NCBI RefSeq assembly: GCF_002197845.1
Contig: NZ_NIDE01000001.1
Location: 1,240,001-1,304,000 of the forward strand
DNA: 64,000 nucleotides
Origin: Fimbriiglobus ruber
GTDB taxonomy: Bacteria > Planctomycetota > Planctomycetia > Gemmatales > Gemmataceae
Reading direction: 5' to 3'
The number at the start of each line of letters is the position of its first letter. The first letter of the stretch is position 1. The notes below the pieces were generated by a model that worked only from the letters and a program-made list of their open reading frames with translations, did not search any database and was not told the origin of the DNA. Made by a program: the position numbers and the translations under genes. Shown here one piece after another: positions 10,467 to 35,482 of the stretch.

Positions 10467-10550
10467 GCGGAAGTGGCGGAACTGGCAGACGCGCTAGATT
10501 CAGGTTCTAGTTCCCGAAAGGGAGTGGAGGTTCAAGTCCTCTCTTCCGCA
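10467..10550 (+). tRNA. tRNA-Leu (anticodon CAG)
   Basis: The 84-base cloverleaf has the acceptor stem GCGGAAG/CTTCCGC with discriminator A, a D-arm GGCGGAACTGGCAGACGC, the anticodon stem CTAGA/TCTAG around loop TTCAGGT (anticodon CAG), a long leucine-type variable arm TTCCCGAAAGGGAG, and the T-arm GAGGTTCAAGTCCTC. The terminal CCA is not encoded. It is the integration target of the downstream element and remains intact after insertion. Confidence 0.96.
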
Positions 10551-10635: not shown

Positions 10636-10684
10636 CTTGCGGCACTCGCGTTGAATTGACGTTGCCCTCCTCTTGGAGCGCGAC

Positions 10685-12007
10685 ATGGCGACCTTGCAAA
10701 TCAGAAACGGCAGCTTCCGAATCCTGTTTCGGTATCTCGGACGACGACACACCTTTACCATCGGGCGTGTCGCGAAACGAGAAGCCGAACTTCTCGCGGC
10801 AAATGTCGACCGAATTCTTCTGCGCGTGGAACAACGGCTTCTCACGGTCCCGCCCGGGATCGACATCGTGGAGTTTGTTCGCAGTGATGGCACACTGAAG
10901 ACACCCGAAGCTGCAATCGAGGAATTTACGTTCGCAGCTGTTCGCGACGGCTACGTTGAAGCACATGCAACCGGAGCGGTTGAAGCCAACACGCTGGCAA
11001 CGACCCGAATCCACCTGAACCACCTCGGTAAGACCTTGGGCGACCAATTCCTCATGCGGTCGCTTTCTCTCGCTGATGTCCAACGCCACATTGATCGGCG
11101 ATTAGCGAGCCGTCACCACGGTCGCCCCATTGGTCCTCAAACCGTGCGAAAAGAGGTTTCGACGCTCGGTGCCATTTGGACATGGGCAGAAACGCGAGGA
11201 ATGGTTTCCAACCGATTTCCCTCGCGTGGGTTGATCTACCCGAAGACCGATGAGAAATCGCCTTTCATGACCTTGCAGGAAATTGAGCGGCGCGTCGTGG
11301 CGGGAGGTTTAACCGAGGCCGAACAAGAATCTCTCTACGAGTCGCTTTACCTCCGTCGCGAAGAAATTGACAGCTTCCTCGCACACGTCCGCCAGCACGC
11401 CGCCCACCCGTTCATCTACCCTCTAATATGTACCGCCGCCCACACGGGAGCCCGTCGGAGCGAGTTGCTGAGGGTAGAAATAACTGACCTCGATCTGGTA
11501 TCGGGCACGTTACTTGTGAGGGAGAAGAAACGATCCAAAAAACAGCGGACCACCCGGCACGTTTCGCTAACACCGTTTTTGAGCGAAGTGCTGAAGGACT
11601 GGCTGGCGATCCATCCAGGAGGCCGGTATCTGTTCGGGCGATCTGGCATCGTTGCACGGAGCCGGAAACGCAGTGCAACGACCGGGCACCAATCGGGCAA
11701 GGATCGAGAAAAAACTTTGAAAGGTCGACACGCCACGGTTCGGCCGCGTGGCGATGTGGAAAACGCTCCCCTCACGAAAGACGAGGCACACGACCACTTC
11801 AAGCGAACTCTTGCTGGGTCGCGGTGGGAAGTGCTGAGAGGGTTTCACGTCCTGCGGCACAGTTTCATTTCATGCCTAGCCGCCGCGGGCGTGGATCAAC
11901 GGATCATCGATGACTTTGTTGGACACTCGACGCCGGAGCAACAAAGAAGATATCGGCACCTGATTCCGGACGTGAAGCAAAAGGCGATCGCGAATGCGTT
12001 CGGCTGA
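10685..12007 (+). CDS. Tyrosine recombinase (integrase)
   Basis: A 440-residue phage-type integrase that catalyses recombination between attP and the tRNA-Leu. The N-terminal arm and core-binding domains are followed by the catalytic domain. This shows the first catalytic Arg in TAAHTGARRSELL (about residue 260), a Lys-rich beta-hairpin (VREKKRSKK), the HxxR box HVLRHSFISCLAAAGVD, and GHSTPEQQRRYRHL with the second His and the nucleophilic Tyr. GGAG lies 7-10 bases before the ATG at 10685, favoured over the frame start at 10673. Its position just inside attL fits the usual int-at-tRNA layout. It converges on a small HTH gene through a shared terminator. Confidence 0.93.
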   Translation: MATLQIRNGSFRILFRYLGRRHTFTIGRVAKREAELLAANVDRILLRVEQRLLTVPPGIDIVEFVRSDGTLKTPEAAIEEFTFAAVRDGYVEAHATGAVEANTLATTRIHLNHLGKTLGDQFLMRSLSLADVQRHIDRRLASRHHGRPIGPQTVRKEVSTLGAIWTWAETRGMVSNRFPSRGLIYPKTDEKSPFMTLQEIERRVVAGGLTEAEQESLYESLYLRREEIDSFLAHVRQHAAHPFIYPLICTAAHTGARRSELLRVEITDLDLVSGTLLVREKKRSKKQRTTRHVSLTPFLSEVLKDWLAIHPGGRYLFGRSGIVARSRKRSATTGHQSGKDREKTLKGRHATVRPRGDVENAPLTKDEAHDHFKRTLAGSRWEVLRGFHVLRHSFISCLAAAGVDQRIIDDFVGHSTPEQQRRYRHLIPDVKQKAIANAFG

Positions 12008-12816: not shown

Positions 12817-14691
12817 CTATGGTTCAACACTGTCGCCGGGATTCCACGCCGGATTTCCCCACCCCGGCGGAATGGGATTAAAGCCGGGATCGTACATGGG
12901 CGATGGAATGGGGCACGCTCGCTGACGCAACTGCTCCTCGCGGACGTGAAGCAGGAACAGTAGGAGGTAGACGGTTGCTGCCAGGAAGACGACGGAGCGA
13001 ACGAGCATCCGCAAACGCCCGCCGAACCACCGGCGGCGGGTCAGGCTAGAATCCTCGAAATAGCGGCGGACGTTAGTGAGTAGCGGCCGTGATCGGCCGG
13101 GCAGGAACACGATTGCCTGCTGCGGGCCGAGCTGAAAAGTTTCGGCAGCCTGGAGCAACTTGCGCCCGGTTTCTTGTGTCGAGGTGCCCGAACTACTGGA
13201 CCACTGGCTCTGATGTCCCTGCTGGCTTGATGACGACGACCACGACGAATTGCGCTGGCTATTCGTCAGTCGGATCGTGCAATCCCCGATCATGTTTTGG
13301 ATGTATTCGGCCGTCTGGTAATCATTCGGCGGGCCGATAAACATCTGACAGCCGACGCAGCTGAGGAACGTCTGGTGTTGGCCGTCCGGAAAGGCCGCGG
13401 ACAGCTGGCCCATCGATTGGTAGGCAAAATTGAGCCGTATGCCGTATCCACGTCCGACGGCCATCGCTTGATCGATACTATCCATGTGCCCAATGGCGGC
13501 CGCTTCGTCGAGAAAGAATTGCACTCGCCGGGCCGGGTCCGTGCCGGCACGGAACATCGCCCGAAACATGCCCGACACCATCAACCGCAACAGCGGGGCT
13601 TGGCTTTTCAGGTGATTGGGTGGCAACACGAGATAAACCGTCACCCGGTCGCGGCACAGACTCATCGGGTCAAAAGCGTTCGGGCCGTTGCTCAGGAATC
13701 GGGCGACCGGCGGTGAGTGCAGGAAGCTCAGGTGCCGCAGGGTGGTGGAGTAGACGGAATTCGCTTCCCGGTCCTTGAACTGGCCGATTTGGTGCGCAAA
13801 CCGCCGCAGGGCTCCACCCCACGCGGGTGATACCGTCATGGCGGCAAGTGCCCCGGCCCGGGCTTCAGGATCAGCAAGGACTTCCTGGGTGTCGGTGAGG
13901 GTGCGATGCTGAGCGTCGGCGTGAGCCAGGACGAATGCCGGGAACCCCGTCAAAATGGTTTCGGCGGAATCATTCCAGTGCGCTTCCGTTTCTCGGCCTG
14001 TCCGAAAAACCAGGGCGTTGGCGAGGTCACGCACCTCGTCCAACGCGGCATCGGAATTCGGGTCGGGATGCGTGAGTGGGTTGTAGGTCCACGAAGGCGG
14101 CCCGAGGACGCCATAAGGGTCCAAAGCCACAATCTTGCTGCCGAAGCGCCGGGCGCGGTGGGCAGCGGTGGCCTTGAAAATCTCCCCTTTGAGATCAATA
14201 ACGACAGCATTGTCAGAACAAGACAGCAGAGCCGGAATAATAAACCCCGTCGTCTTGCCTCCCCCGGGTGGGGAGAACACAACCGAGTGAACACCATCGG
14301 GTAGTCGGACCGGCTCACGGGCGACCCGTTTCGAGCCGCCAAGGGCACAGTCGAAGTGACGGACGGCACCTTCAGCATCTTTAGACCGGGAAGTGAAAAG
14401 CCGGCGGGCCGCACGCAGCAAACTAGGACGTTCGGCTCCCACCAAATAGCCGAGCGGCAATCCGGTCGGACCCCCGATCAAATTGGCCGCCAATGCATCG
14501 TTGGCTGTGCCCCACCGGGCCGAGCCGTAGCTGCTAGACCTGGACCGCCGGAGATAGAGGAACGCGACGACCCCGACCCCCAGCATCGGCCACGGGTAGA
14601 ACAGGGAGTGAATGACCGCACATGAGCCGGCCCCGGCGAGACAGCCCCCGCGCTGGCACATCCGGGTAAGGAAGACCGATAGTTTACGCAT
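12817..14691 (-). CDS. Type IV coupling protein (VirD4/TraG family)
   Basis: A 624-residue inner-membrane ATPase that links the relaxase-DNA complex to a type IV secretion channel. Hydrophobic segments occupy residues about 22-46. Walker A is SPPGGGKTTGFIIPA near residue 135, followed by VVIDLKGEIFKATAAHR. Walker B is VQFFLDEAAAIGHMDSIDQA near residue 390, and the FAYQSMGQLSAAF region matches the TraM-recognition domain. A serine/glutamine-rich stretch (about 490-510) and a second hydrophobic segment near residue 565 precede a proline-rich tail, which is unusual. Its start overlaps the end of the ParB-like gene by 8 bases, implying translational coupling. Confidence 0.9.
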   Translation of the reverse strand: MRKLSVFLTRMCQRGGCLAGAGSCAVIHSLFYPWPMLGVGVVAFLYLRRSRSSSYGSARWGTANDALAANLIGGPTGLPLGYLVGAERPSLLRAARRLFTSRSKDAEGAVRHFDCALGGSKRVAREPVRLPDGVHSVVFSPPGGGKTTGFIIPALLSCSDNAVVIDLKGEIFKATAAHRARRFGSKIVALDPYGVLGPPSWTYNPLTHPDPNSDAALDEVRDLANALVFRTGRETEAHWNDSAETILTGFPAFVLAHADAQHRTLTDTQEVLADPEARAGALAAMTVSPAWGGALRRFAHQIGQFKDREANSVYSTTLRHLSFLHSPPVARFLSNGPNAFDPMSLCRDRVTVYLVLPPNHLKSQAPLLRLMVSGMFRAMFRAGTDPARRVQFFLDEAAAIGHMDSIDQAMAVGRGYGIRLNFAYQSMGQLSAAFPDGQHQTFLSCVGCQMFIGPPNDYQTAEYIQNMIGDCTIRLTNSQRNSSWSSSSSQQGHQSQWSSSSGTSTQETGRKLLQAAETFQLGPQQAIVFLPGRSRPLLTNVRRYFEDSSLTRRRWFGGRLRMLVRSVVFLAATVYLLLFLLHVREEQLRQRACPIPSPMYDPGFNPIPPGWGNPAWNPGDSVEP

Positions 14692-15487
14692 GGGGGATCT
14701 CCTGATGCGAACGATCGTTCATCATCCGAATCCAGGTCGTGACCGGGTGGCCTGAGTCGTGTGCGCGGCGGGCGCTCTTGAGGGTTTCGGAAAGGTGGTC
14801 GATAACGCCGGCCAGGGTAAGCCCGTGGCCGCGTAGGGTAACGAGGGTTCCACCGTGCAGGGATACTTTGACGGTTGTAAGGCGGGATTCCGTATCGCTC
14901 CCACGAGCCGCGCGGGTCCGCTTCCGTTCGAGTTGATCGCGGGAAAGGCCGCTCAGTTTAGCGGCGAGAAGCTCCTTCTGTTCTGTTTCCCCTTCGGCCT
15001 TGGAGATGGCGTAGACATCGCTCTGGGAAATCGTGCCGGCGGCAAAGGCATCGCGGACGTGCTCACACACCTTGCCGGCAGCGAGGATTTTGGTCACCGA
15101 TGCGGGGTCGATCTTCAAGTACCCGGCGAGTTGTTTCCCATTCCAATTGTTGAGGCGCAGGAGTTCTTCGCAAGCCTGGAACTTTTCAAACGGGGTGAGG
15201 TCGACGCGTTGAAAGAACGTCGTCAGTCGAATGGCTGCAAGCTCTTGAGGTGAGGGAATATCGTCCCACACAATGCCATTGAGTGTTTCCAATCCGACCA
15301 GCTGGGCAGCACGCCAGCGGCGTTCACCGTCGATCAGTGTGCCATCGCGCCGTAAGTGGATTGGCTCGATCTGCCGCCACTTGAGTGATGCGCCGAGGTA
15401 TTGGAGATCCGCTTGTTCAAAGGCTTTTCGTGGATTGTTGGGGTCGGGTTTGATGTCGATGACGGGATATTTGACGATCTGCTGCAT
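14684..15487 (-). CDS. ParB-like nuclease/partition domain protein
   Basis: This 267-residue protein has the N-terminal ParB/Srx domain: VIDIKPDPNNPRKAF near residue 10, then the GERRWRAA box typical of the CTP-binding pocket. A KorB-like HTH segment follows (KQLAGYLKIDPASVTKILAA). The C-terminus is basic with no recognised dimer domain. AAGGAGAGATTC precedes the ATG at 15487; the longer frame to 15565 lacks a site. It is not adjacent to ParA, which lies 19 kb away with its own small partner. Coupling to the VirD4 gene suggests a transcriptional or DNA-transfer role rather than classical partition. Confidence 0.85.
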   Translation of the reverse strand: MQQIVKYPVIDIKPDPNNPRKAFEQADLQYLGASLKWRQIEPIHLRRDGTLIDGERRWRAAQLVGLETLNGIVWDDIPSPQELAAIRLTTFFQRVDLTPFEKFQACEELLRLNNWNGKQLAGYLKIDPASVTKILAAGKVCEHVRDAFAAGTISQSDVYAISKAEGETEQKELLAAKLSGLSRDQLERKRTRAARGSDTESRLTTVKVSLHGGTLVTLRGHGLTLAGVIDHLSETLKSARRAHDSGHPVTTWIRMMNDRSHQEIPHA

Positions 15488-15561: not shown

Positions 15562-15594
15562 GCACGGCCGGCAGAAGGAGCCTGCCGGCCGTGC
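15562..15594. terminator. Hairpin between microprotein gene and ParB-like gene
   Basis: Perfect 13-bp stem GCACGGCCGGCAG / CTGCCGGCCGTGC with a 7-base loop. There is no T-run on the minus strand, so it may attenuate or stabilise rather than terminate. Confidence 0.55.
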
Positions 15595-15657: not shown

Positions 15658-15681
15658 GGCCGGTGAATCCGTTCACCGGCC
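15658..15681. terminator. Hairpin just after the microprotein stop codon
   Basis: GGCCGGTGAA pairs with TTCACCGGCC around a 4-base loop, 12 bases beyond the minus-strand stop at 15694. Confidence 0.55.
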
Positions 15682-15693: not shown

Positions 15694-15819
15694 TTAGCCC
15701 TTGAGCCGTTTCCACAACCCCGTGAGTCCCGAGCCGTCGCTCGGGTTGCTCTTCATGAGGTAGACGCCGCCAGCCACGCTGCAACCGACAACCAACACGC
15801 CGAATAGGAACAGGCTCAT
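15694..15819 (-). CDS. 41-residue membrane microprotein (family member 1)
   Basis: The frame encodes MSLFLFGVLVVGCSVAGGVY then LMKSNPSDGSGLTGLWKRLK and a final Gly. One transmembrane helix is followed by a short polar linker and a basic amphipathic tail. GGAGG lies 8-12 bases before the ATG, a strong ribosome-binding site. A paralogue lies immediately upstream (15913-16080), and related frames lie at 25369 and 25614. A perfect hairpin stands in its leader. It is the second gene of a minus-strand series leading to the coupling protein. The function is unknown; a membrane role in conjugation, exclusion or toxicity is only a possibility. Confidence 0.7.
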   Translation of the reverse strand: MSLFLFGVLVVGCSVAGGVYLMKSNPSDGSGLTGLWKRLKG

Positions 15820-15836
15820 CGCATATCCTCCGTTCA

Positions 15837-15862
15837 CGAGACACCCAGGATTGGGTGTCTCG
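15837..15862 (-). promoter_or_regulatory. Leader hairpin of microprotein 1
   Basis: CGAGACACCCA / TGGGTGTCTCG with a 4-base loop, 17 bases before the start codon. A degenerate version (GACACCCGGATTGGGT) occupies the same place before microprotein 2. Confidence 0.65.
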
Positions 15863-15912
15863 CACTTCTATGTCTCTCAAGCGATGTAATTTTCTCGGAT
15901 TTGTTGGGGTTG

Positions 15913-16080
15913 TTAGCCCTGGAGTCGCTTTCGGACCCATTCACCCACCCCGGTCGTGCCGTCCTGAGACTCCTTCATCAGATACACTCCACCGGCAAAG
16001 CCGCAGCCAACGAGCAGCAGGCCGACACCGCTCGCCACGAAACAACCGACCATCAGCGCTCCACACAGGAACAGGTTCAT
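15913..16080 (-). CDS. 55-residue membrane microprotein (family member 2)
   Basis: The frame encodes MNLFLCGALMVGCFVASGVG, then a second hydrophobic stretch LLLVGCGFAGGVYLMK and the tail ESQDGTTGVGEWVRKRLQG. It aligns with the 41-residue downstream neighbour at MxLFL, at VGC..AGGVYLMK and at the W-x-(K/R)-R-L-(K/Q)-G end, with an internal duplication of the VGC-type segment. GAGGAG precedes the ATG at 16080. The leader resembles that of microprotein 1. Tandem duplication of gene and leader is the simplest origin. The function is unknown. Confidence 0.7.
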   Translation of the reverse strand: MNLFLCGALMVGCFVASGVGLLLVGCGFAGGVYLMKESQDGTTGVGEWVRKRLQG

Positions 16081-16260
16081 CGCATCTCCTCATTTCGCGG
16101 GACACCCGGATTGGGTTCTTCCGCACCCTTCTATGTTCACTCGCGACAAAAATTTACCCGATTTGGTTTGCGGAACGCGCGAATTGGATGTCGACAAAAG
16201 AGCCTGCCACGAAACCCGTTTCTTACCGGCTGCGGGGGGGGCGGGAAAACGCTGTGAGGT

Positions 16261-16560
16261 TCACGGCACCGGAAACAGCAGGCGCTCGTAGTCGCGTGCG
16301 GCGTGCAAGATATGCACGATCAGAACACGATCGGTCTCGACTTGGTAAAAGACCGAATAATTACCAATCGGTCGGCGGCGAAGACCGTGGTTTTCGTAGC
16401 GTGGAATCAAAGGATAGGCGCGAGGGGTATCCCCCAAGGCGAGCGTAGCGGTGTGGAGTTCTTTGACGAAGGAGAGCGCCCGGTGCGGGTTGTCCTCAGC
16501 GATATAGTTGCCGATCGCGGTGAGGTCAGATTTTGCGGCGTCGGAAAAGACGACCTTCAC
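16261..16560 (-). CDS. parE: ParE/RelE-family toxin
   Basis: This 99-residue protein has the ParE fold pattern: MKVVFSDAAKSDLTAIGNYI with the leading helices, ALGDTPRAYPLIPRYENHGLRR in the middle, and a C-terminal strand pair YSVFYQVETDRVLIVHILHA followed by RDYERLL. ParE toxins poison DNA gyrase and block replication. The gene overlaps the antitoxin gene by 4 bases (ATGA type), the usual antitoxin-first order. It probably stabilises the element. The exact target (gyrase or ribosome) is inferred from closeness to ParE rather than RelE. Confidence 0.88.
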   Translation of the reverse strand: MKVVFSDAAKSDLTAIGNYIAEDNPHRALSFVKELHTATLALGDTPRAYPLIPRYENHGLRRRPIGNYSVFYQVETDRVLIVHILHAARDYERLLFPVP

Positions 16561-16823
16561 GAGTTCCTACGTTCCTCAGCCATCCGCACATACCGGGCTT
16601 CCAACTCCCCGAATACTTCTTCGGCCGGCGTGACACGACCGGCTTGGCCGTCCGCTATGCCTTTTTCGATCCGGGCATCAAGAGCGGCTAACCACCGTTC
16701 ACGCTCCTCCATGAGTCTGAGGGCATCCCGCAAGACTTCGCTCGCGTTGTTGTACCTCCCGCTGGCGAGTTGCGCCCGCACGAACGATTCGTAGTGTTGA
16801 CCGAGGGTATAGCTGCTGGGCAT
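16557..16823 (-). CDS. parD: ParD-family antitoxin
   Basis: This 88-residue antitoxin has a ribbon-helix-helix N-terminus (MPSSYTLGQHYESFVRAQLA) and the diagnostic GRYNNASEVLRDALRLMEER segment. A helical, acidic C-terminus wraps the toxin. I chose the ATG at 16823 because family members begin with this short strand; an in-frame ATG exists at 16847. No clear ribosome-binding site precedes either. Overlapping AT-rich palindromes directly upstream are the probable autoregulatory operator. Confidence 0.88.
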   Translation of the reverse strand: MPSSYTLGQHYESFVRAQLASGRYNNASEVLRDALRLMEERERWLAALDARIEKGIADGQAGRVTPAEEVFGELEARYVRMAEERRNS

Positions 16824-16832
16824 AGTGACAAA

Positions 16833-16855
16833 ATGATTAATTATCATCTAATGAT
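16833..16855. promoter_or_regulatory. Operator of the parDE pair
   Basis: Two overlapping palindromes, ATGATTAATTATCAT (16833-16847) and ATCATCTAATGAT (16843-16855), sit where the ParD ribbon-helix-helix protein would bind and cover the promoter side of the operon. Confidence 0.6.
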
Positions 16856-17087: not shown

Positions 17088-17639
17088 ATGCAAGTTGGGT
17101 ACATGCGGGTAAGCAAGGCGGATGGGAGCCAGGTCACGGACCTTCAGCGGGATGCCTTGCTTGCTGCGGGCGTCGATACACATCATCTCTACGAAGACAT
17201 GGCTTCGGGCAAGGTTGAAGATCGTCCTGGCCTCACGGCGTGCCTCAAAGCGTTGCGAGAAGGCGATACGCTGGTAGTTTGGAAACTCGACCGCCTAGGC
17301 CGCGATCTTCGGAGCCTCGTCAATCTCGTCCACGATTTGAATCAACGAGGGATCGGCTTCCGAGTGCTGGCCGGCCACGGGGCCAGCATTGACACGACCT
17401 TGCCTAGCGGAAAGCTCGTCTTTGGAATATTCGCAGCTCTTGCGGAATTTGAACGCGCCTTAATTGTTGAGAGGACTATCGCGGGCTTGGCTGCTGCTCG
17501 CGCCCGTGGACGACGGGGGGGGCGGCCGTACAAGATGACGGCGACGAAGCTGAAAATCGCCGTCGCGGCTGTCAAGAACAAGGAAACGAGGATCAGTGAA
17601 CTCTGCACCGAATTGGAGATTACCCGGCAGACGCTCTAG
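17088..17639 (+). CDS. Serine resolvase/invertase, C-terminus cut by an in-frame TAG
   Basis: This 183-residue small serine recombinase has the catalytic-domain start MQVGYMRVSKADGSQ with the nucleophilic Ser, LDRLGRDLRSLVNLV with the conserved arginines, and the E-helix region KLVFGIFAALAEFERALIVE. The HTH domain is interrupted: the frame reads ITRQTL, then TAG, then RHVGPDGSVRDDGKRLL up to a second TAG at 17730-17732. Family members normally have TLYRHV here, so TAC to TAG is the likely change. The full frame would end inside the ribosome-binding site of the next gene, which suggests that this was the original stop. The truncated HTH probably binds DNA poorly. Confidence 0.85.
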   Translation: MQVGYMRVSKADGSQVTDLQRDALLAAGVDTHHLYEDMASGKVEDRPGLTACLKALREGDTLVVWKLDRLGRDLRSLVNLVHDLNQRGIGFRVLAGHGASIDTTLPSGKLVFGIFAALAEFERALIVERTIAGLAAARARGRRGGRPYKMTATKLKIAVAAVKNKETRISELCTELEITRQTL

Positions 17640-17741
17640 CGGCATGTTGGGCCGGACGGAAGCGTGCGGGACGACGGTAAACGGTTGCTGCAAGGGGAGC
17701 GCAAACCCGACACCGGTTTCACGAACACGTAGGAGGATCGA

Positions 17742-18080
17742 TTGGAAAACCTGCTCACCGTCATCTTCGAAGCTCATCACGCCGCGCTGAACCACCACCG
17801 ATTCTACGAAGTGACCATCGGGCGCGACTTGCTGGACGACTGGACGGTGGTGATCCGCTATGGCCGGGACGGGCAGGGAGGTCAGGAGAAACGCTTCGCG
17901 TCTCCCGATCCGAGTGTTTTGCGGGCGATAATCCGTAACCGTCTCCGACGGCGTTTGACAGCACCCAGGCGTATCGGGTGTTCGTACCGGCTCGTAGGTA
18001 GCAACGCCGCGCCCGACTACGCGGCCGCGGATTGGTTTCCTGATGACGTGATGAAACAATTTGGCTTCGACGTAACTTGA
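17742..18080 (+). CDS. WGR-domain protein
   Basis: This 112-residue protein is dominated by a WGR-like domain: RFYEVTIGRDLLDDWTVVIR then YGRDGQGGQEKRF, with the W, YGR and GGQ positions of the motif. WGR domains bind nucleic-acid ends in PARPs, and stand-alone versions occur on plasmids. The TTG start at 17742 is chosen because AGGAGG lies 5-10 bases upstream. It follows the resolvase reading frame closely, so the two were probably co-transcribed. A role in DNA maintenance of the element is inferred. Confidence 0.7.
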   Translation: MENLLTVIFEAHHAALNHHRFYEVTIGRDLLDDWTVVIRYGRDGQGGQEKRFASPDPSVLRAIIRNRLRRRLTAPRRIGCSYRLVGSNAAPDYAAADWFPDDVMKQFGFDVT

Positions 18081-18162
18081 GTTTTGGCAACAAATAACGC
18101 CCGCCACGCTTGAAAATCTGCCGCCGATCCGACTCGACCGTATATTCCGCTCCGCCGCCCCG

Positions 18163-18440: not shown

Positions 18441-18473
18441 GGACATGTATACACTACAGCAATGGAGGCAGCC

Positions 18474-19166
18474 ATGACATCTGAAGAAGCAAAAAAGGAA
18501 GCCACACAACGAATTCGTAAAGCCAAGTCATCAGGTCAATGGTGGCTTGGCCTAGGAGATTTGACACTTACGACCTTACCAAAATCTTTTTTATCACTTG
18601 CCCCTCAACTGCGATTCTTGAGCCTGGGTCGGCGAAAGGTTGACCCAAATAAAAAATTTTGGGAGTGGGAGCTTGAATTTGAAAAGGAGCAGTTTTTTCA
18701 CGATCTGCGCCAATTAGTACAGTTTCGAAAACTTACCAGTCTGGATCTAAGTGGAACGCAAGTTACTAAGCTGGATTGTCTTGAGAATATAACTAGTCTC
18801 GCCTGCTTAGATCTCAGCGGAACTCAAATTAAAGACCTCAGCCCGCTCTCCAGCCTCACCAATCTTACTTGTTTATTATTGGATTACACAAACGTTTCAG
18901 ACCTTGCCTCTCTTTCTAATCTCACCAAAATCAATTTATTGAGTATAGATGGCACCTTAATTACAGACATTAATCCACTCTCCAATCTTACCTATTTGAC
19001 GTATCTAGACCTTGCAGGGTCTCAAATTAAGGACGTAAGTCCGCTCTCTGATCTAACGAGTTTGGAATATTTAGACCTCGCAGCGTCTCAAATTAAGGAC
19101 CTGACTCCACTTACCCGTCTCACAAATCTTACTTACCTTAGAGCCTGTCCGGGAAGACTATTTTGA
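18474..19166 (+). CDS. ROCO gene 5' fragment (leucine-rich repeats)
   Basis: GGAGG lies 4-8 bases before the ATG at 18474. It encodes about 222 genuine residues: a lysine-rich start, WWLGLGDLTLTTLPKSFL, then internalin-type repeats (SLDLSGTQVTKLDCLENITS). The last residues and stop come from the left end of IS5 copy 1. The fragment alone lacks the GTPase. Confidence 0.8.
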   Translation: MTSEEAKKEATQRIRKAKSSGQWWLGLGDLTLTTLPKSFLSLAPQLRFLSLGRRKVDPNKKFWEWELEFEKEQFFHDLRQLVQFRKLTSLDLSGTQVTKLDCLENITSLACLDLSGTQIKDLSPLSSLTNLTCLLLDYTNVSDLASLSNLTKINLLSIDGTLITDINPLSNLTYLTYLDLAGSQIKDVSPLSDLTSLEYLDLAASQIKDLTPLTRLTNLTYLRACPGRLF

Positions 19167-20091
19167 TGCAACTCTATATTTAAACGGGGGATAACGCTCT
19201 TGTGGATCCATGCGATTGAGGATCAGCTGGATTGACCGCACACGAATCATGGATTCGCTGGAACTATTCAGTCGCTCATAATTACGACTTAACCGCCGGG
19301 CCCGCCCGAGCCACCCGAACGTCCGCTCGACGACCCACCGCTTGGGTAACAGGGTGAACCCCTTGACCCCGTCCGGTCGGCGGACGATGACGAGTTCCCA
19401 TCCGAGTTCCGGGTGGCCGTCTTTCCACCCGTTCAGGGCATGGTTGTGGTACTTCCCGTCGGCCCACACGACCTTCAATCGCGGGTACGCGTCACGGTCC
19501 AACCCTTCGAGTACGGTCGGGGCCGCGGCCGCGTCGTCGACGTGCCCGGCGGTCACCGCCACGACCATCAGCAGGCCCAGCGTATCGACCACGATCGACC
19601 GCTTCCGGCCCTGGATTTTCTTGCCCGCATCGTACCCGTTCCCGCCCGCGTGTTCGGTCCCTTTGACCGACTGGCTGTCGATGCTCGCGGCACTCGGGGT
19701 CCGCTCGTGACTCGGGGCGTGGACTTCCCGATACCCCTCCCGGAGGACATCCAGGAGTTCTTGCCAGGTGCCATCGTCCCGCCACTGGGCGAAGTATTCG
19801 TACACCGTACTCTTGGCCGGGAAGTCGTGCGGGAGCATCGACCACTGACACCCCGACCGGTTCACGTACACGATCGCGTTCAGCACCTCCCGGAGGTCCA
19901 CCGACCGGGGGCGTCCTCCGGGTCGGGCGGCCGGCAGGACGACCTGGATGATCTCCCATTGGAGGTCGGTCAAATCGGTCGGATACGGTTTGCGAACGGT
20001 CGCATCCATGACTTCGCTCCTCGAGTACGAAGGAGCGACTAACTTACAAGAGACGCACAACTTACAGCAAGGTCACTTTTCGGACAGCCTC
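19141..20091 (-). mobile_element. IS5-family element, copy 1
   Basis: A 951-bp element with imperfect terminal repeats GAGCCTGTCCGGGAAG (left) and GAGGCTGTCCGAAAAG (right, read inward), and a TTA target duplication at 19138-19140 and 20092-20094. It is nearly identical to 32838-33789 but inverted, and interrupts the ROCO repeats in a codon-neutral way. Confidence 0.93.
19158..20009 (-). CDS. IS5-family transposase
   Basis: This 283-residue DDE transposase has the N-terminal helix domain YPTDLTDLQWEIIQVVLPAA, the first catalytic Asp in AASIDSQSVKGTEHAGG, the second in VVWADGKYHNHAL and the Glu in WVVERTFGWLGRARRLSRNY. The GAGGAG before the ATG at 20009 decides the start; the frame upstream to 20060 is the element end. 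It appears intact and differs from copy 2 at only scattered residues, for example RLNSSSESMIRVR against NTSSSESMVKVR. Confidence 0.93.
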   Translation of the reverse strand: MDATVRKPYPTDLTDLQWEIIQVVLPAARPGGRPRSVDLREVLNAIVYVNRSGCQWSMLPHDFPAKSTVYEYFAQWRDDGTWQELLDVLREGYREVHAPSHERTPSAASIDSQSVKGTEHAGGNGYDAGKKIQGRKRSIVVDTLGLLMVVAVTAGHVDDAAAAPTVLEGLDRDAYPRLKVVWADGKYHNHALNGWKDGHPELGWELVIVRRPDGVKGFTLLPKRWVVERTFGWLGRARRLSRNYERLNSSSESMIRVRSIQLILNRMDPQERYPPFKYRVASK

Positions 20092-20096
20092 TTAGT

Positions 20097-23000
20097 TTGG
20101 AGAAAACCAAAATAACAGACCTAACCCCGCTTAGCAATCTAACGAATCTTAAGCATCTGGATCTATGTGATACTAAAACTAAGGACATAAGTTCGCTCGC
20201 CAGCCTTAACCATGTCACAGGCCTAAGTTTAGAAAAAACGCGAGTCACGAATTTGAGTCCGCTTGCTTGTTTGAGAGATCTTTCAGTTTTGAATCTGAAA
20301 GACATAAAAGCGACAGATCTACAGGTACTCTCTGCTTTTTCTAATCTTACAGTTTTAGATCTTAGTGGCACTCAAATCAAGGACCTGAGCCCTCTCTCCA
20401 AGCTTACTAAGCTTTTTTCTTTGAATTTGAAGCACACACATGTAACTGACATTAAACCACTCGCTACCCTGTCGAATCTCACAGATTTGAGCCTGAGTTG
20501 CACCAAGATCACAGACATTTCCTCACTCGCCAATCTTACTCGGCTTATTTGTTTAGATCTGTACGGGACAAATATCTCAGATATAAGCCCACTCGCCAAT
20601 CTCGCACATATTAATACACTGAACTTAGAAAGCACACAGGTTACCGACCTTAGGATGTTTCCACTCGCCCATCTCTCCACATTAAATCTTAGATTGACTC
20701 CAGTAGTAGATCTACGACCGCTCTGTAATGCGACTGCGCTGACTACAATAAATTTAGCCAATTGCAGGAGAATTACGAGCGTACAAGGCCTGGGAGGCCT
20801 TCCTGTGCTCGCTACTATCAATCTGAATGCATGTGAAGAACTGGTTGATGTTGATGGACTAGCGGATTTGCCCTCCCTAAACTCGCTTAACCTTGCCGAC
20901 TGTTCTAATCTGAGAAGTATTGAAGGCTTATCAAATTTAACATCTCTGAAACGGCTATATTTGCAGTATTGTAACAATATAACTAACCTGGACGCCTTAT
21001 CTGGCCTAAGATCACTTACGGAGTTGTACATATGTTACTACTCCAACTTGACGAATATTGAAGGTCTAGCAAAACTTGTTTCCCTCACCACCCTCAGTCT
21101 TTCGCATTGCTCAGGCTTGACGAGTGTAGAGTATCTGTCTCAACTTACCGCGATCACTGTACTCGATTTGTCGCATTGCTCTGGTCTAACTAGCGTCGAG
21201 GGCCTAGCGAGACTCATAGCGATTACCCATCTCAGCCTGTCAAGTTGTTCTGGTCTGTCGAGTGTCAAGGGCTTGGCAAAACTAACCGCGCTCACTTCTC
21301 TTAATCTGTCTTTTTGTGCGGAGCTGGAGGATATCAGAGACTTGGCCGGCCTTTCATCGTTAACCACTCTCGATCTATCTGATTGCGCACAACTCTGCAA
21401 CCTCGAAGGCTTGTGCAATATGACGGCTCTCGCCAAGCTCAATCTATCTAAATGCTTTAAACTAGAAAATCTTGATGGAATGGCCGATCTACCTAAAATT
21501 GACGAAATTGACCTATCATTTAACGAAGCTTTACTCAGCATAAACGCCATAAGTAATTTGCAACATTTACGGTCATTAAATCTGTCACATTGCATAGCAC
21601 TTAGGCATATCTCACCTGTGAAACATTTGTTGGATAAAATGGAGTTTCTCTACATTGAGAACACTTTTTTTGAAGACCTGCATCCTGATATGAATGAATG
21701 GGGATTGCACGAAAATCCAGTAGACATGCTACGCAAGTATTATTGTGCAATAGAGCACGGATCGCAGCCAGACGCCGAAATCAAAGTGTTCGTGCTTGGT
21801 AATGGAGGAGTTGGGAAGACTAAACTGATAGGAAGATTGCTAGGAGAATCATTCAATTCGATACCGGAAATCCGTACACATGGAATACAGATTCCACGAC
21901 CACTTACTATTTATCATGGAGAACAGGCTATAAAGTTGCATTTTTGGGATTTTGGAGGGCAAGATATCTACCACGGTACTCATTCATTGTTTCTTACTGG
22001 GCCAGCGATATTCATGCTAATTTTATCCGATGATATGGAAAACGAGTCGGAATCGATCGTCAATGGTATCCCGGTAAAAAACAGATTGATAGACTATTGG
22101 TTTGATTATCTCGTCCAAGTTGCTGGTAAAGATGGTCATGTTGAAATGCCTATAGTTTTCGTAAAAAACAAGTGCGACTCACTTGTAGATGAGCACACTG
22201 ACTCGTCACACTACTCCTTTCCGAAAGATCGCTTTGTTCGCCTTACAAAACTTTTGAGAACAAGTGCAAAAACTGGGAGCGGCCTTGGCGACATACAAGG
22301 CTCTCTGTGGACAGCGGTATATCAGATAATGTCCAATTATCCGCAAAAGCTACTCCCGTTGAGTTGGTTTAGAGTGCGCGAGGACTTGAGAGTCATGCAG
22401 CAAAATCGATCACCGCGAACTTTGTCGCTAGCTGATTTGGCAACGATTTGTGAAAAGCATGGCTGCCCTGGGGATGAGTGCGTCGTCAGAGATATTTTCC
22501 ATCGAATGGGTGTCGTGTTTTACCGCAAAGGAATTTTTGACAACCAAATTATTCTGGATCAGTCATGGGTGCTTGACGCAGTATATACAATTTTTACGCC
22601 GAACAAAAACTTTCAAGGGATAATAAGGTCATCGGGTCGATTCAGTAGAATCGACCTGATGTATCATTTCTGGAGAAATTTCTCTAGAGAAGAGCAGTCG
22701 CTTTTTTTGAGTTTATGCAACAGTGCCACATTTGTTTCAATATCCAGGAATCTAGGGGTAGTGAAGATAGTGTATATATTGCTCCCGACATGCTCGCTCC
22801 TTGGGGAGCAATCGAAAGCAGATTATTTGCGTGGCAGCAAGATGTTAAACCCTTATGTAAAATGGAGGCCGAGTACGTTCTATTGCACGATGGCATACTT
22901 CGCATATTGCTATCAAAAGTTGGTCGTATCGCGATGGCCAATGCTATCTATTGGAAATACGGTTGTCATTTTCATGAAGAAGAAACGGGAAGCGAGGTAA
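20097..23000 (+). CDS. ROCO gene middle fragment (repeats, Roc, start of COR)
   Basis: It continues the repeat array directly after IS5 copy 1. The first half is 22-residue repeats, then repeats of the form LxxLxLSHCSGLTSVEGLAxL. Walker A GNGGVGKTK is near residue 567, the switch-II DFGGQDIYHGTHSLFL follows, then VFVKNKCDS and LRTSAKTGSGLGD, and the COR region begins LSWFRVREDLRVMQQNRSP. The true coding part ends near 22708. After that, the residues in this frame lose COR character, while the -1 frame continues it (FMQQCHICFNIQ). Confidence 0.82.
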   Translation: MEKTKITDLTPLSNLTNLKHLDLCDTKTKDISSLASLNHVTGLSLEKTRVTNLSPLACLRDLSVLNLKDIKATDLQVLSAFSNLTVLDLSGTQIKDLSPLSKLTKLFSLNLKHTHVTDIKPLATLSNLTDLSLSCTKITDISSLANLTRLICLDLYGTNISDISPLANLAHINTLNLESTQVTDLRMFPLAHLSTLNLRLTPVVDLRPLCNATALTTINLANCRRITSVQGLGGLPVLATINLNACEELVDVDGLADLPSLNSLNLADCSNLRSIEGLSNLTSLKRLYLQYCNNITNLDALSGLRSLTELYICYYSNLTNIEGLAKLVSLTTLSLSHCSGLTSVEYLSQLTAITVLDLSHCSGLTSVEGLARLIAITHLSLSSCSGLSSVKGLAKLTALTSLNLSFCAELEDIRDLAGLSSLTTLDLSDCAQLCNLEGLCNMTALAKLNLSKCFKLENLDGMADLPKIDEIDLSFNEALLSINAISNLQHLRSLNLSHCIALRHISPVKHLLDKMEFLYIENTFFEDLHPDMNEWGLHENPVDMLRKYYCAIEHGSQPDAEIKVFVLGNGGVGKTKLIGRLLGESFNSIPEIRTHGIQIPRPLTIYHGEQAIKLHFWDFGGQDIYHGTHSLFLTGPAIFMLILSDDMENESESIVNGIPVKNRLIDYWFDYLVQVAGKDGHVEMPIVFVKNKCDSLVDEHTDSSHYSFPKDRFVRLTKLLRTSAKTGSGLGDIQGSLWTAVYQIMSNYPQKLLPLSWFRVREDLRVMQQNRSPRTLSLADLATICEKHGCPGDECVVRDIFHRMGVVFYRKGIFDNQIILDQSWVLDAVYTIFTPNKNFQGIIRSSGRFSRIDLMYHFWRNFSREEQSLFLSLCNSATFVSISRNLGVVKIVYILLPTCSLLGEQSKADYLRGSKMLNPYVKWRPSTFYCTMAYFAYCYQKLVVSRWPMLSIGNTVVIFMKKKREAR
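22702..22709 (+). promoter_or_regulatory. -1 shift site: slippery TTTTTTG in the COR domain
   Basis: Zero-frame codons CTT TTT TTG contain T TTT TTG. Slipping back one base gives CTT TTT TTT GAG TTT ATG, encoding LFFEFM, which continues the COR domain. Loss of one T from an eight-T run explains it equally well. Confidence 0.5.
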
Positions 23001-25164: not shown

Positions 25165-25181
25165 GAGGACGGGCCCGAAAT

Positions 25182-25233
25182 CAACTTCAAAAGGCGCGGG
25201 GCGGCAGATGCCGCCCCGCGCCTTTTGAAGTTG
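25182..25233. terminator. Very strong hairpin/terminator
   Basis: A perfect 24-bp stem (CAACTTCAAAAGGCGCGGGG with GCGC/GGGG core) closes a 4-base AGAT loop, 18 bases after the stop at 25164. It is A/T-rich at the base and GC-rich at the top, so it can act in both directions. Confidence 0.8.
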
Positions 25234-25368
25234 AAGTGACGCTTCGTTCTGATCCCATTACCCAATCCGATTTCCGCTGAACCCACCAAGAAAATTCCCG
25301 TCACTTGTCGGCAAGTTTAAGTAGCGAGAAACCCATTTCGGGGCCTCGTGCAGAAGGAGTACGACAAC

Positions 25369-25500
25369 ATGACGATCGCCTTGCTGTGCAAAATGTTCGG
25401 TGGCTATGTCGTAGCTGGCGGCATGCACCTACTGCAAAGTAATGCCGACACGATCAATGGGGTGCAACAGTGGCTTTGCAAACGTCTCAAGCGTAAATGA
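25369..25500 (+). CDS. 43-residue microprotein (family member 3)
   Basis: The frame encodes MTIALLCKMFGGYVVAGGMH, then LLQSNADTINGVQQWLCKRL and KRK. It has the same plan as the proteins at 15694 and 15913: a hydrophobic start, an AGG(V/M)(Y/H)L(M/L) turn, SN, and a W-x-x-(K/R)-R-L-K basic end. AAGGAG lies 10-15 bases before the ATG, a slightly long spacing. It is the first of three small genes in a row. The function is unknown; the recurrence in one element suggests a maintained role. Confidence 0.65.
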   Translation: MTIALLCKMFGGYVVAGGMHLLQSNADTINGVQQWLCKRLKRK

Positions 25501-25568
25501 CGCGGAATATCGTCACCGGACTTTCCGACACAAAATCGAAAAAATTCACGACTCGAATCGGCATAGAG

Positions 25569-25591
25569 GGATGCGTGGGAAGGACGCATCC
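25569..25591 (+). promoter_or_regulatory. Leader hairpin of the next microprotein
   Basis: GGATGCGT / ACGCATCC with a 7-base loop, 22 bases before the ATG at 25614. It parallels the hairpins before the minus-strand microprotein genes. Confidence 0.5.
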
Positions 25592-25613
25592 GAGTCTCGA
25601 CGAGAGATGAGCC

Positions 25614-25742
25614 ATGTTAACCATTACGTTCGCGCTACTGGTAATCGTGTTCGGGGTGGGTTCGCTGGTGTCGAAGGCGGTCAAACACCCGAATACGTCC
25701 GCCGGCGTCGGACGGATCTTTTTCGGGTTGTTCAGGAAGTAA
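25614..25742 (+). CDS. 42-residue membrane microprotein (family member 4)
   Basis: The frame encodes MLTITFALLVIVFGVGSLVS, then KAVKHPNTSAGVGRIFFGLF and RK: one transmembrane helix, a polar SAGVG-type linker like TTGVG in member 2, and a short basic end. GAGATGAGCC precedes the ATG. It is the most divergent member and its assignment rests on size, layout and neighbourhood. Two hairpins follow. Confidence 0.6.
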   Translation: MLTITFALLVIVFGVGSLVSKAVKHPNTSAGVGRIFFGLFRK

Positions 25743-25747: not shown

Positions 25748-25821
25748 GACCGCCATCGCGAGAAGGTAGCTCCTGGCGATGGCGGTCAATGATTCTCTAC
25801 CGGCCTCATCGTGGGGGCCGG
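25748..25821. terminator. Two successive hairpins
   Basis: GACCGCCATCGC pairs with GCGATGGCGGTC, and then ACCGGC..GCCGGT is followed by TTT. The second has the form of a rho-independent terminator placed before the 25851 gene. Confidence 0.65.
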
Positions 25822-25850
25822 TTTTCTCTAACTTGACGGGGATTTTCAAC

Positions 25851-25991
25851 ATGGCTGTTTCCGCACAACACGTAAAGGCCCAACTTCGGCACTTCGCCCG
25901 TCAATTTGAACAATTTGTTCGGGCCTGGAATCAGCGGGTGGAACGGTGGCTCAGCCAGCACTTGTCCCTGACCAAGAATCCCAAAAAGTAA
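25851..25991 (+). CDS. 46-residue basic small protein
   Basis: The frame encodes MAVSAQHVKAQLRHFARQFE, then QFVRAWNQRVERWLSQHLSL and TKNPKK. It is amphipathic, Gln/Arg-rich and without a membrane segment. It lies third in the microprotein run and ends at a good terminator. The start at 25851 removes 24 unlikely residues from the longer frame (25779), whose DNA forms the preceding hairpins. The function is unknown; a helical nucleic-acid or membrane-surface binder is possible. Confidence 0.55.
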   Translation: MAVSAQHVKAQLRHFARQFEQFVRAWNQRVERWLSQHLSLTKNPKK

Positions 25992-26011
25992 TCTCGCTCG
26001 CGAAACCAACC

Positions 26012-26046
26012 GCCGCCGGGGACCATGTGGCCCCCGGCGGTTTTTT
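26012..26046 (+). terminator. Rho-independent terminator
   Basis: CCGCCGGGG / CCCCGGCGG stem followed by TTTTTT, 21 bases after the stop at 25991. Confidence 0.85.
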
Positions 26047-26864: not shown

Positions 26865-27377
26865 TCATCGCAGGAAGGCGGGCGCTTTCGCCCTCACCCA
26901 CTCCCGTAGGTCAGTTAGCGACTCGAATTCCCCGACCTCAATGGCGTCGACCGTTGGCCCCCCTGCTCCCACCGCTTTCAGGCTCGCTGGGTCCATTGCC
27001 CGTACCCACGTGACCCGATGCCGCTGGAAACCTCGATCCAGCATATTTACCCCGTCCGTGTTCACCGGCGCGTCCAGGTTGCTCCCCCGCACCAGCACCA
27101 GGGAAACCACGTCGGCCGTGAACCGCAGTAACAGCCCGACTGACGGGTTGAACCGCCACCCGGCCAGATGGCTGTAGGGGAAAATGTCGCTGTTCCCGTT
27201 CAAGAACCGGAATTCGACCGCCAGTGCCCGAGCCGTACTGCCCCGCAGGAACCCGAAGGCCGGGCACGTTTCCTCTTCGCCTTCCGCCGTGGTCTCGCCC
27301 GCCCCCCGGCGGGCGGCCGCCGCTTTGAGATACGGGAGGCGGGTGGTCAGGGCGTCGGGCGGGCCGTTATCGCTCAT
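26865..27377 (-). CDS. Hypothetical protein translationally coupled to the relaxase
   Basis: This 170-residue protein begins MSDNGPPDALTTRLPYLKAA. Its ATG at 27377 overlaps the relaxase stop region by 11 bases, and GAGGGG precedes it. It contains FRFLNGNSDIFPYSHLAGWR and FNPSVGLLLRFTADVVSLVL, then VRWVRAMDP-like and EFESLTDLREWVRAKA segments, suggesting a compact alpha/beta fold. Tight coupling implies a role with the relaxase, perhaps at oriT. The longer frame to 27587 is a shadow of the relaxase. I do not recognise the family. Confidence 0.65.
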   Translation of the reverse strand: MSDNGPPDALTTRLPYLKAAAARRGAGETTAEGEEETCPAFGFLRGSTARALAVEFRFLNGNSDIFPYSHLAGWRFNPSVGLLLRFTADVVSLVLVRGSNLDAPVNTDGVNMLDRGFQRHRVTWVRAMDPASLKAVGAGGPTVDAIEVGEFESLTDLREWVRAKAPAFLR

Positions 27378-32151: not shown

Positions 32152-32428
32152 TTATCCACAAGCCTAGAGTGTTAATTATTGAGTTAGATACTGTGTTAAG
32201 GGGCTCAATCCTCGCCAGAACCCATTCAAATAAAACGCAAATCCGAAACAGCCGGTGGGTAAATACACGATGGATGGTGGGCAAATACACGAAAACCGGT
32301 GGGTAAAAGCACGTTCGCTGCGGGCAGTGGGTGAAAGCACGATGATCCAGTCCCGGTGTGTGAAAACACGATGCTTGACATTGGTGTGTGAAAACACGAT
32401 AGTCCGGATATGGTGGGTAATAACACGA
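32152..32428 (+). other. Plasmid-type replication origin (oriV): DnaA box, AT-rich segment and seven iterons
   Basis: TTATCCACA (32152-32160) is a consensus DnaA box. An AT-rich stretch follows (32165-32200). Seven direct repeats of consensus GGTGKGTRAAWRCACGA then start at 32254, 32276, 32298, 32326, 32355, 32383 and 32412, with spacing 22, 22, 28, 29, 28 and 29. RepA begins at the last iteron. This is the layout of iteron-controlled plasmids, where RepA binds the iterons to open DNA and limit copy number. Confidence 0.88.
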
Positions 32429-32874
32429 AGATACGCACGCCGCTGCTCCCGGATCGTCATCCGATCCAGGATTTCTTCGTGTGCGACGTAACCGACGCTA
32501 TTCCGAAAGATGACATGGGATCGATGGAACACCCCATCTTCTCCCTCTCCACCAAGCCCGATCTGGCCATTCGGGAATACGAACACAACGGGGTCAAGGT
32601 GTCCATTGCGCCGAGTATGCTGGGTATGGCGACCATTCACGACAAGGACATTCTGATCTACTGCATCAGCCAGCTAATCGCCAAAATGAAAACCGGGGTG
32701 GGCTTAAACCGGACCCTCCATGTCAAGGCCCTCGACCTGTTGCTCGCAACGAACCGCAACATTGACGGCCGCGGGTACGAGCAACTGGTCGCTGCCCTCG
32801 ACCGACTGCGGGGCACCAGCATCCGTACCAACATTAAGAGGCTGTCCGAAAAGTGCCCTTGCTGTAAGTCGTGA
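32410..32874 (+). CDS. RepA N-terminal fragment
   Basis: About 142 genuine residues holding the first winged-helix domain, followed by a dozen residues from the IS5 end. The ATG overlaps the last iteron, so RepA binding would also repress its own expression. Confidence 0.75.
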   Translation: MVGNNTKIRTPLLPDRHPIQDFFVCDVTDAIPKDDMGSMEHPIFSLSTKPDLAIREYEHNGVKVSIAPSMLGMATIHDKDILIYCISQLIAKMKTGVGLNRTLHVKALDLLLATNRNIDGRGYEQLVAALDRLRGTSIRTNIKRLSEKCPCCKS

Positions 32875-33789
32875 GATTCCTTTAAGTTAGTCGCTCCTTC
32901 ATCATTCAGGAGCGAGGTCATGGACGCGCCCGTTCGTAAACCGTATCTGACGGATTTGACCGATGTCCAATGGGAGACCATCGAGCCCCTTCTGCCCGCC
33001 GCCCGGTTCGGAGGGCGGCCCCGGTCGGTCGACCTCCGGGAGGTGATGAACGCGATCCTGTACGTGAACCGGACCGGGTGCCAGTGGTCCCTGCTCCCGC
33101 ACGATTTCCCGGCCAAGAGTACGGTGTACGAATACTTCGCCCAGTGGCGGGATGACGGCACCTGGCAACACCTCCTGGATGTCCTCCGGGAGGGGTATCG
33201 GGAGGTCCATGCTCCGAGTCACGAGCCGACCCCGAGCGCCGCGAGCATCGATAGTCAGTCGGTCAAGGGGACCGAGCATGCGGGTGGGAACGGGTATGAC
33301 GCGGGCAAGAAAATCCAGGGCCGGAAGCGGTCGATCGTGGTCGACACGCTCGGGTTGTTGATGACCGTGGCGGTCACCGCCGGGCACGTCGACGATGCGG
33401 CCGCGGCCCCGTCCGTGCTCGAATCGTTGGACCGTGAGGCGTACCCGCGGTTGAAGGTCGTATGGGCCGACGGGAAGTACCACAACCATGCCCTGAACGG
33501 GTGGAAGGACGGTCATCCGGAACTCAGATGGGAACTCGTCATCGTCCGCCGGCCGGACGGGGCGAAGGGGTTCGTCCTGTTGCCCAAGCGGTGGGTGGTG
33601 GAGCGGACCTTCGGGTGGCTCGGTCGCGCCCGCAGGCTAAGTCGGGACTACGAACGAAATACTAGTTCTAGTGAATCTATGGTTAAAGTGCGGTCGATTC
33701 AATTGATCCTCAATCGCATGGACCCCAAAAAGTGTTATCCCCCATTTAAATATAGAGTTGCATCAAAATAGTACTTCCCAGACAGGCTC
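32838..33789 (+). mobile_element. IS5-family element, copy 2
   Basis: A 952-bp copy nearly identical to 19141-20091 in opposite orientation. Terminal repeats are GAGGCTGTCCGAAAAG and GAGCCTGTCTGGGAAG, with TAA target duplications at 32835-32837 and 33790-33792. It interrupts repA. Confidence 0.93.
32920..33771 (+). CDS. IS5-family transposase
   Basis: This 283-residue DDE transposase is almost identical to that of copy 1. The catalytic residues lie in AASIDSQSVKGTEHAGG, VVWADGKYHNHAL and WVVERTFGWLGRARRLSRDY. AGGAG precedes the ATG at 32920. It is intact and probably able to act on both copies. Confidence 0.93.
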   Translation: MDAPVRKPYLTDLTDVQWETIEPLLPAARFGGRPRSVDLREVMNAILYVNRTGCQWSLLPHDFPAKSTVYEYFAQWRDDGTWQHLLDVLREGYREVHAPSHEPTPSAASIDSQSVKGTEHAGGNGYDAGKKIQGRKRSIVVDTLGLLMTVAVTAGHVDDAAAAPSVLESLDREAYPRLKVVWADGKYHNHALNGWKDGHPELRWELVIVRRPDGAKGFVLLPKRWVVERTFGWLGRARRLSRDYERNTSSSESMVKVRSIQLILNRMDPKKCYPPFKYRVASK

Positions 33790-34423: not shown

Positions 34424-34492
34424 GAAAGGGAGAATTCAAGAAAGGGAGAAATTTCGCTTTCCTGAATTCTTGCTTTCCGGAAAGCGAGATTT
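34424..34492. repeat. Palindromic repeat cluster downstream of repA and parB-like gene
   Basis: Repeats of the type GAGAAA..TTTC and CTTTCCNGAA, including GCTTTCCGGAAAGC (34472-34485). They match the motif found before and inside the ParA gene. Confidence 0.65.
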
Positions 34493-34493
34493 C

Positions 34494-35461: not shown

Positions 35462-35482
35462 GAATACAAGAATTACATCGAA

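What the first reader, a model, noticed from the sequence alone, without database searches (positions are those of the whole stretch)
15694..16080. Tandem membrane microproteins with duplicated leader hairpins
Two paralogous frames of 41 and 55 codons, each with a strong ribosome-binding site and a similar GACACCC..GGGTGTC leader, open the transcript that leads to the ParB-like and coupling-protein genes. They are too short for routine gene calling and match no family I know.
Basis: partly seen in the sequence, partly recalled or inferred. Interest (0 to 1): 0.75.

Follow-up and report, generated by a model that had tools for sequence, protein, structure and literature searches.

The report
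Orphan membrane microprotein family, mobile element
A mobile DNA element inserted in a tRNA gene carries two small self-contained cassettes encoding at least three related membrane peptides of 41-55 residues (plus a fourth that shares their control region), which match no protein family searched; they may be toxin-like or accessory membrane peptides, but their function has not been shown.

Summary
The two minus-strand frames (55 aa, 15913-16080; 41 aa, 15694-15819) are real paralogues with good ribosome-binding sites, and their divergence shows protein-level constraint in that frame only (permutation p = 1e-4; dN/dS about 0.1-0.4). Two details fail. A perfect leader hairpin forms only before the 41-aa frame. 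A strong intrinsic terminator (15594-15562) separates the microproteins from parB and the coupling-protein gene, so they do not simply open that transcript. I found the set to be larger. A third homologue (mp3, 43 aa, 25369-25500 +) and a fourth small membrane ORF (mp4, 42 aa, 25614-25742 +), whose leader matches that of the first, form a second cassette about 9.5 kb away. Both lie in one 32-kb element flanked by tRNA-Leu copies (integrase, MOB_F relaxase, T4CP, ParB, ParDE). No relatives were found elsewhere in the 12.4-Mb genome, in 95 family, 397 class and 392 phylum genomes, in plasmid or phage records, or in Pfam/PHROGs/NCBIfam. Most likely these are element-borne membrane-active peptides working like type I toxins. 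No antisense RNA was found and toxicity is untested, so I do not file them as type I toxins.

The parts
15913..16080 (-). mp1, 55-aa microprotein MNLFLCGALMVGCFVASGVGLLLVGCGFAGGVYLMKESQDGTTGVGEWVRKRLQG; long hydrophobic helix containing a 13-aa internal repeat (GALMVGCFVASGV / GLLLVGCGFAGGV), short linker, basic C-terminal helix
   Evidence: ORF and SD; internal repeat p = 0.001 against residue shuffles; AlphaFold2 helix 2-40 and 45-53, mean pLDDT 72 with only 2 sequences
15694..15819 (-). mp2, 41-aa microprotein MSLFLFGVLVVGCSVAGGVYLMKSNPSDGSGLTGLWKRLKG
   Evidence: ORF and SD; paralogue of mp1
16081..16170 (-). mp1 leader: A/T block (TAAATT), CATAGAAGGGTGCG motif, interrupted stem-loop, SD
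   Evidence: 79% identical to mp2 leader; motif CATAGARGNNTGCG occurs only twice in the 12.4-Mb genome, here and at mp4
15820..15912 (-). mp2 leader with perfect stem-loop GCGAGACACCCA-ATCC-TGGGTGTCTCGT at 15836-15863
15562..15594 (-). intrinsic terminator between mp2 and parB
   Evidence: 14-bp stem followed by TTTTT; -31 kcal/mol, z -5.9
15658..15681 (-). 10-bp G+C-rich hairpin just after the mp2 stop codon, no T run
25369..25500 (+). mp3, 43-aa microprotein MTIALLCKMFGGYVVAGGMHLLQSNADTINGVQQWLCKRLKRK, with AAGGAG SD; third family member
   Evidence: weak hit (E 0.19); best non-self score among 488 small ORFs of the window against mp1, 63 against next 33; segment-wise shuffle p <= 5e-4 against mp1 and mp2
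25614..25742 (+). mp4, 42-aa small membrane ORF MLTITFALLVIVFGVGSLVSKAVKHPNTSAGVGRIFFGLFRK; same architecture, leader homologous to mp1's, protein similarity not significant
   Evidence: leader: best non-overlapping match of the mp1 leader outside cassette A among sequences upstream of 1353 ATGs; motif shared only with mp1 in the genome; best non-training hit of the mp1+mp2 leader model, E 0.078; protein p 0.05-0.39
25276..25368 (+). mp3 leader, similar to mp2 leader (AGAAAATT ... GCGAGAAACCCATTTCGGGGCCTCGT)
   Evidence: best match of mp2 leader outside cassette A among 1353 ATG upstreams; weak, E 2.2, with the mp1+mp2 model
25522..25613 (+). mp4 leader with CATAGAGGGATGCG motif and 8-bp stem-loop GGATGCGT/ACGCATCC
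25181..25234 (.). 26-bp perfect inverted repeat that closes off the upstream gene and isolates cassette B
25748..25787 (+). stable hairpin just after the mp4 stop codon, mirroring the hairpin after mp2
25799..25822 (+). intrinsic terminator of cassette B, followed by TTTTCTC
14684..15487 (-). parB-like gene (context, own start and SD)
   Evidence: PF02195, TIGR00180
12817..14691 (-). type IV coupling protein, TraG/VirD4 type (context)
   Evidence: PF02534 5.7e-68
16261..16847 (-). ParDE toxin-antitoxin pair directly upstream of cassette A (context)
   Evidence: PF05016, PF03693
10467..42317 (.). integrated element bounded by tRNA-Leu(CAG) copies; tyrosine integrase 10673-12007, TrwC-type relaxase 27367-30060, RepA-like 32410-32874

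Best explanation
A tRNA-Leu-integrated mobilizable element encodes a private family of single-pass membrane microproteins in two autonomous cassettes. Each cassette is a pair of small genes, each gene with its own conserved leader, closed by a hairpin and an intrinsic terminator. Three proteins are homologous; the fourth shares the leader and the build. Shown by sequence: coding constraint, paralogy, leader conservation, terminators, confinement to this element. Inferred: the peptides insert N-out/C-in with the basic amphipathic tail on the cytoplasmic face, are made under tight post-transcriptional control through the structured leader, and act on the membrane of a cell that loses or receives the element. 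In other words they work like type I toxins, or a relic of such a system, serving element maintenance alongside the neighbouring ParDE pair.
For: Three homologous ORFs with SDs. Frame-specific protein constraint p = 1e-4 and dN/dS 0.1-0.4. Leaders more conserved than the coding sequence (79% against 64%), shared across the two cassettes and found nowhere else in the genome (four hits at 75-89 bits, next 19.6 bits, judged chance). Terminators isolate both cassettes. Size under 60 aa, one hydrophobic helix and a cationic C-terminus predicted cytosolic are the common features that a review lists for membrane type I toxins (PMC8309996). Copy number, tandem arrangement and a restricted distribution also fit, from general knowledge of type I systems such as Ldr and Ibs. 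AlphaFold2 gives a long helix plus a C-terminal helix.
Against: No antisense promoter was found opposite either cassette by loose scans: one 7/12 candidate facing mp3 and one facing mp4, none facing mp1 or mp2, and no Rfam antitoxin RNA above threshold. mp1's hydrophobic stretch (33 residues) is longer than in known type I toxins, and known toxin families in Pfam/NCBIfam are not matched. The SD itself is not hidden by the stem-loops, and the apparent start-codon sequestration in long leaders changes with the length folded. Toxicity is untested.
Confidence: 0.35

Rival explanations
1. Accessory subunits or modulators of a membrane complex of the element or host: for example small partners of the coupling protein, or small exclusion proteins that bar a second copy of the element.
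For: Cassette A lies beside the T4CP and parB genes. The G-rich helix (GxxxxGxxxxxGG) and the constraint suggest helix packing with a partner. From general knowledge, small inner-membrane proteins such as KdpF, CydX and AcrZ act this way, and exclusion proteins of conjugative elements are often small membrane proteins.
Against: The second cassette lies away from transfer genes. Related parB-T4CP pairs in six other elements of the own and related genomes lack the peptides. The terminator separates cassette A from parB-T4CP. Four separately led copies are unusual for a stoichiometric subunit.
Confidence: 0.27
2. Small membrane peptides with a host-directed regulatory or stress role (cargo), expressed from element-specific promoters, without toxicity or transfer function.
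For: Standalone cassettes between terminators; a shared promoter-like and leader block suggests co-regulation.
Against: No similarity to any known regulator; nothing in the neighbourhood points to a target.
Confidence: 0.25
3. The conserved blocks act mainly as DNA or RNA sites (operators for ParB or another regulator, attenuators); the short ORFs are leader peptides or incidental.
For: The leaders are at least as conserved as the ORFs; the mp2 palindrome is perfect; parB is nearby.
Against: Frame-specific protein constraint and a protein-level match to mp3 across cassettes. The exact palindrome pattern occurs at one other, dissimilar place in the genome, and the mp1 copy is broken.
Confidence: 0.08
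4. Chance ORFs in duplicated non-coding DNA.
For: They are short and have no database match.
Against: Under random placement of the same substitutions a stop appears in about 58% of simulations and residue identity is far lower; SDs on three of four; independent third homologue.
Confidence: 0.03

Closest known systems
Membrane-acting type I toxins (Fst/Ldr, Hok, TisB, Ibs, DinQ, AapA, TxpA/BsrG classes)
   Same: Under 60 aa, one hydrophobic helix, cationic C-terminus predicted in the cytosol, structured leaders, tandem or multiple copies, mobile-element location.
   Different: No sequence similarity, no Fst/Ldr PxxxG motif, no detected antisense RNA, longer hydrophobic stretch in mp1, toxicity untested.
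Small exclusion proteins of conjugative elements (TrbK of RP4, Eex of IncW/IncN plasmids)
   Same: Small membrane proteins encoded in transfer regions.
   Different: Known small ones are lipoproteins with a charged N-region before the lipobox; mp1 and mp2 have a VGC motif at position 11-13 but no charged N-region and continue hydrophobic after the Cys; mp3 and mp4 lack it. No element-encoded VirB4-sized protein was found.
Small regulatory subunits of membrane complexes (KdpF, CydX, AcrZ)
   Same: 30-50 aa single-pass helices.
   Different: No partner operon; multiple copies with their own leaders.

Membership tests
Type I toxin-antitoxin (membrane toxin) | Hydrophobic peptide under 60 aa with one transmembrane helix | tested here: met
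   55, 41, 43 and 42 aa; Kyte-Doolittle 17-residue maxima 2.40, 2.35, 1.55 and 2.45; AlphaFold2 helix for mp1
Type I toxin-antitoxin (membrane toxin) | Cationic C-terminal part | tested here: met
   Net charge after the hydrophobic part +1, +3, +4, +4
Type I toxin-antitoxin (membrane toxin) | Antisense RNA antitoxin | tested here: inconclusive
   Consensus scans give no convincing opposite-strand promoter; no Rfam match; host promoter rules unknown
Type I toxin-antitoxin (membrane toxin) | Translationally inert primary transcript or sequestered start region | tested here: inconclusive
   Start codons of mp1-mp3 can pair with the 5' leader at some fold lengths, but for mp1 and mp2 the result changes with the segment folded
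Type I toxin-antitoxin (membrane toxin) | Toxicity on overexpression, neutralised by the antitoxin | not testable with these tools
   needs an experiment
Fst/Ldr superfamily | PxxxG-type motif in the helix and profile match | tested here: not met
   No proline in the hydrophobic segment of mp1-mp3; no Pfam/NCBIfam match
Lipoprotein-type entry exclusion protein | Signal peptide II with positively charged N-region and lipobox | tested here: not met
   By reading the sequences: no K or R before Cys13 in mp1 and mp2, hydrophobic residues continue after it; absent in mp3 and mp4
Known protein family in Pfam, PHROGs, NCBIfam or PADLOC | Profile match | tested here: not met

The most novel reading that the evidence does not exclude
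A previously undescribed class of mobile-element membrane peptides, in paired cassettes whose proteins can diverge beyond recognition (mp4) while the structured leader that controls them stays the same, i.e. a leader-defined regulon of interchangeable micropeptides private to one element.
Probability: 0.2. Interest if true: 0.65.

Novelty: new member of a known kind. Interest (0 to 1): 0.42.

Why it matters
Short membrane proteins on mobile elements are missed by routine gene calling, and no type I-like system in planctomycetes turned up in the papers searched. A private family present four times on one element, with constrained proteins and an even better conserved leader, is a small testable system: expression in a laboratory strain would show whether it is a stability toxin, an exclusion factor or a regulator.

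Tried and rejected
(1) Start-codon sequestration by the 5' leader looked striking with 75 nt upstream and 12 nt downstream, but with 15 nt downstream mp1 and mp2 lose most of it at that length; kept as a hint only (mp3's 11-bp complementarity is steadier). (2) Hairpin in all four leaders: only mp2's stands out from the background of ATG upstreams (1.8%; mp4 13%, mp1 26%, mp3 38%). (3) Homologues in related elements: none among eleven related T4CP loci, 95 family, 397 class and 392 phylum genomes, viral contigs, plasmids or phages; weak hits lie inside long unrelated frames. (4) Leader model in the own genome: two extra hits at 18.6-19.6 bits have no small membrane ORF behind them; none in 95 family genomes. 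(5) Palindrome GACACCC-N-GGGTGTC as a repeated operator: only one other, dissimilar site in the genome. (6) RNA family search: only hits far below gathering scores, mostly on the inverted repeats. (7) Rhizobial loci fetched through the coupling protein are 23-31% identical T4CPs and were not pursued.

Full report
Location and context. The finding sits inside an element bounded by tRNA-Leu(CAG) copies at 10467-10550 and 42238-42317 (70 nt, 97% identical). The element carries a tyrosine integrase, a TraG/VirD4-type coupling protein, a ParB-like protein, a ParDE pair, a serine resolvase, a TrwC-type relaxase and a RepA-like protein. None of the large ORFs that I tested is VirB4-like, so the element is probably mobilizable rather than self-transmissible (inference).

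The two reported frames. mp1 (55 aa, 15913-16080) and mp2 (41 aa, 15694-15819) are on the minus strand with good SDs. They align over 37 residues at 57%, and a 108-bp block with 261-bp spacing covers leader and start. The difference in length comes from a 13-residue hydrophobic unit present twice in mp1 (GALMVGCFVASGV, GLLLVGCGFAGGV) and once in mp2 (GVLVVGCSVAGGV); the internal repeat has p = 0.001 against shuffles.

Coding test. On two alternative codon alignments dN is 0.33-0.40 and dS 0.99 or more (saturated in the ML estimate), a ratio of 0.1-0.4. When the same substitutions are placed at random, 15-16 residues are expected to be identical against 25 observed (p = 1e-4), with no excess in the other two frames. 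The pair is a single comparison of 40 codons, so the ratio is rough, but the direction is clear.

Leaders. Leader identity (66 of 84 ungapped columns) exceeds coding identity (64-65%), so the leader is itself constrained. Only mp2's forms a perfect stem-loop; mp1's is interrupted and no more stable than expected.

Not an operon with parB. A 14-bp stem with a T run lies between mp2 and parB. parB has its own SD and ATG at 15487. Read-through cannot be excluded, but the sequence argues for a separate unit.

A second cassette. A weak genome hit (E 0.19) proved to be a third member, mp3, at 25369-25500 on the plus strand. It scores 63 against mp1 where the next of 488 small ORFs scores 33, with p <= 5e-4 against composition-preserving shuffles. 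Against mp2 the margin is small (54 against 50), so the claim rests on mp1 and on the joint pattern AGG-x-x-L ... W-x-x-KRL. Downstream lies mp4 (25614-25742): its protein is not significantly similar (p 0.05-0.39), but its leader is the best match to the mp1 leader outside cassette A among 1353 ATG upstreams, and the motif CATAGARGNNTGCG occurs only at mp1 and mp4 in the whole genome. A model from mp1 and mp2 leaders alone ranks mp4 first (E 0.078) and mp3 fourth (E 2.2) among non-training hits (the opposite strand of the mp2 hairpin is one of those between). Thus mp4 membership is good but not certain, and leader homology of mp3 is moderate. Cassette B is bounded by a 26-bp perfect inverted repeat upstream and a terminator downstream, with a stable hairpin after the last stop codon, as in cassette A.

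Distribution. No homologue of proteins or leaders was found elsewhere in the genome or in any collection searched. Related parB-T4CP pairs elsewhere lack them. For peptides this short, distant relatives would be missed.

Function. All four have one hydrophobic segment and a basic tail with moderate amphipathicity; AlphaFold2 predicts a long helix, a short linker and a C-terminal helix for mp1, at moderate confidence with two sequences. These are the common features of membrane type I toxins as reviewed (PMC8309996). In Gram-negative systems the toxin transcripts are described as translationally inert until processed (PMC11228461). A comparable closed form can be folded for mp1-mp3 but is not robust. 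No antisense RNA could be shown. I therefore say 'works like a type I toxin' at 0.35 and do not claim membership.

Noticed in passing
25852-25992 +: 46-aa basic amphipathic ORF (MAVSAQHVKAQLRHFARQFEQFVRAWNQRVERWLSQHLSLTKNPKK) just after cassette B, followed by its own terminator-like inverted repeat at 26013-26040; no transmembrane segment.
   Followed up: partly
19157-20094 and 32835-33772: Two copies (87%) of an IS5-type insertion sequence in inverted orientation; the first appears to interrupt a leucine-rich-repeat gene (18462-23000).
   Followed up: no
34447-34494 and 35481-35572: Several palindromes sharing CTTTCCGGAAAG / GCGAGATTTC, close to the RepA-like gene; possible iteron, partition or transfer-origin sites.
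   Followed up: no
60948-61160: Tandem 96-bp repeat (98%) with long inverted repeats outside the element.
   Followed up: no
17460-18107 -: 215-aa ORF overlapping the resolvase gene on the other strand, no Pfam match.
   Followed up: no
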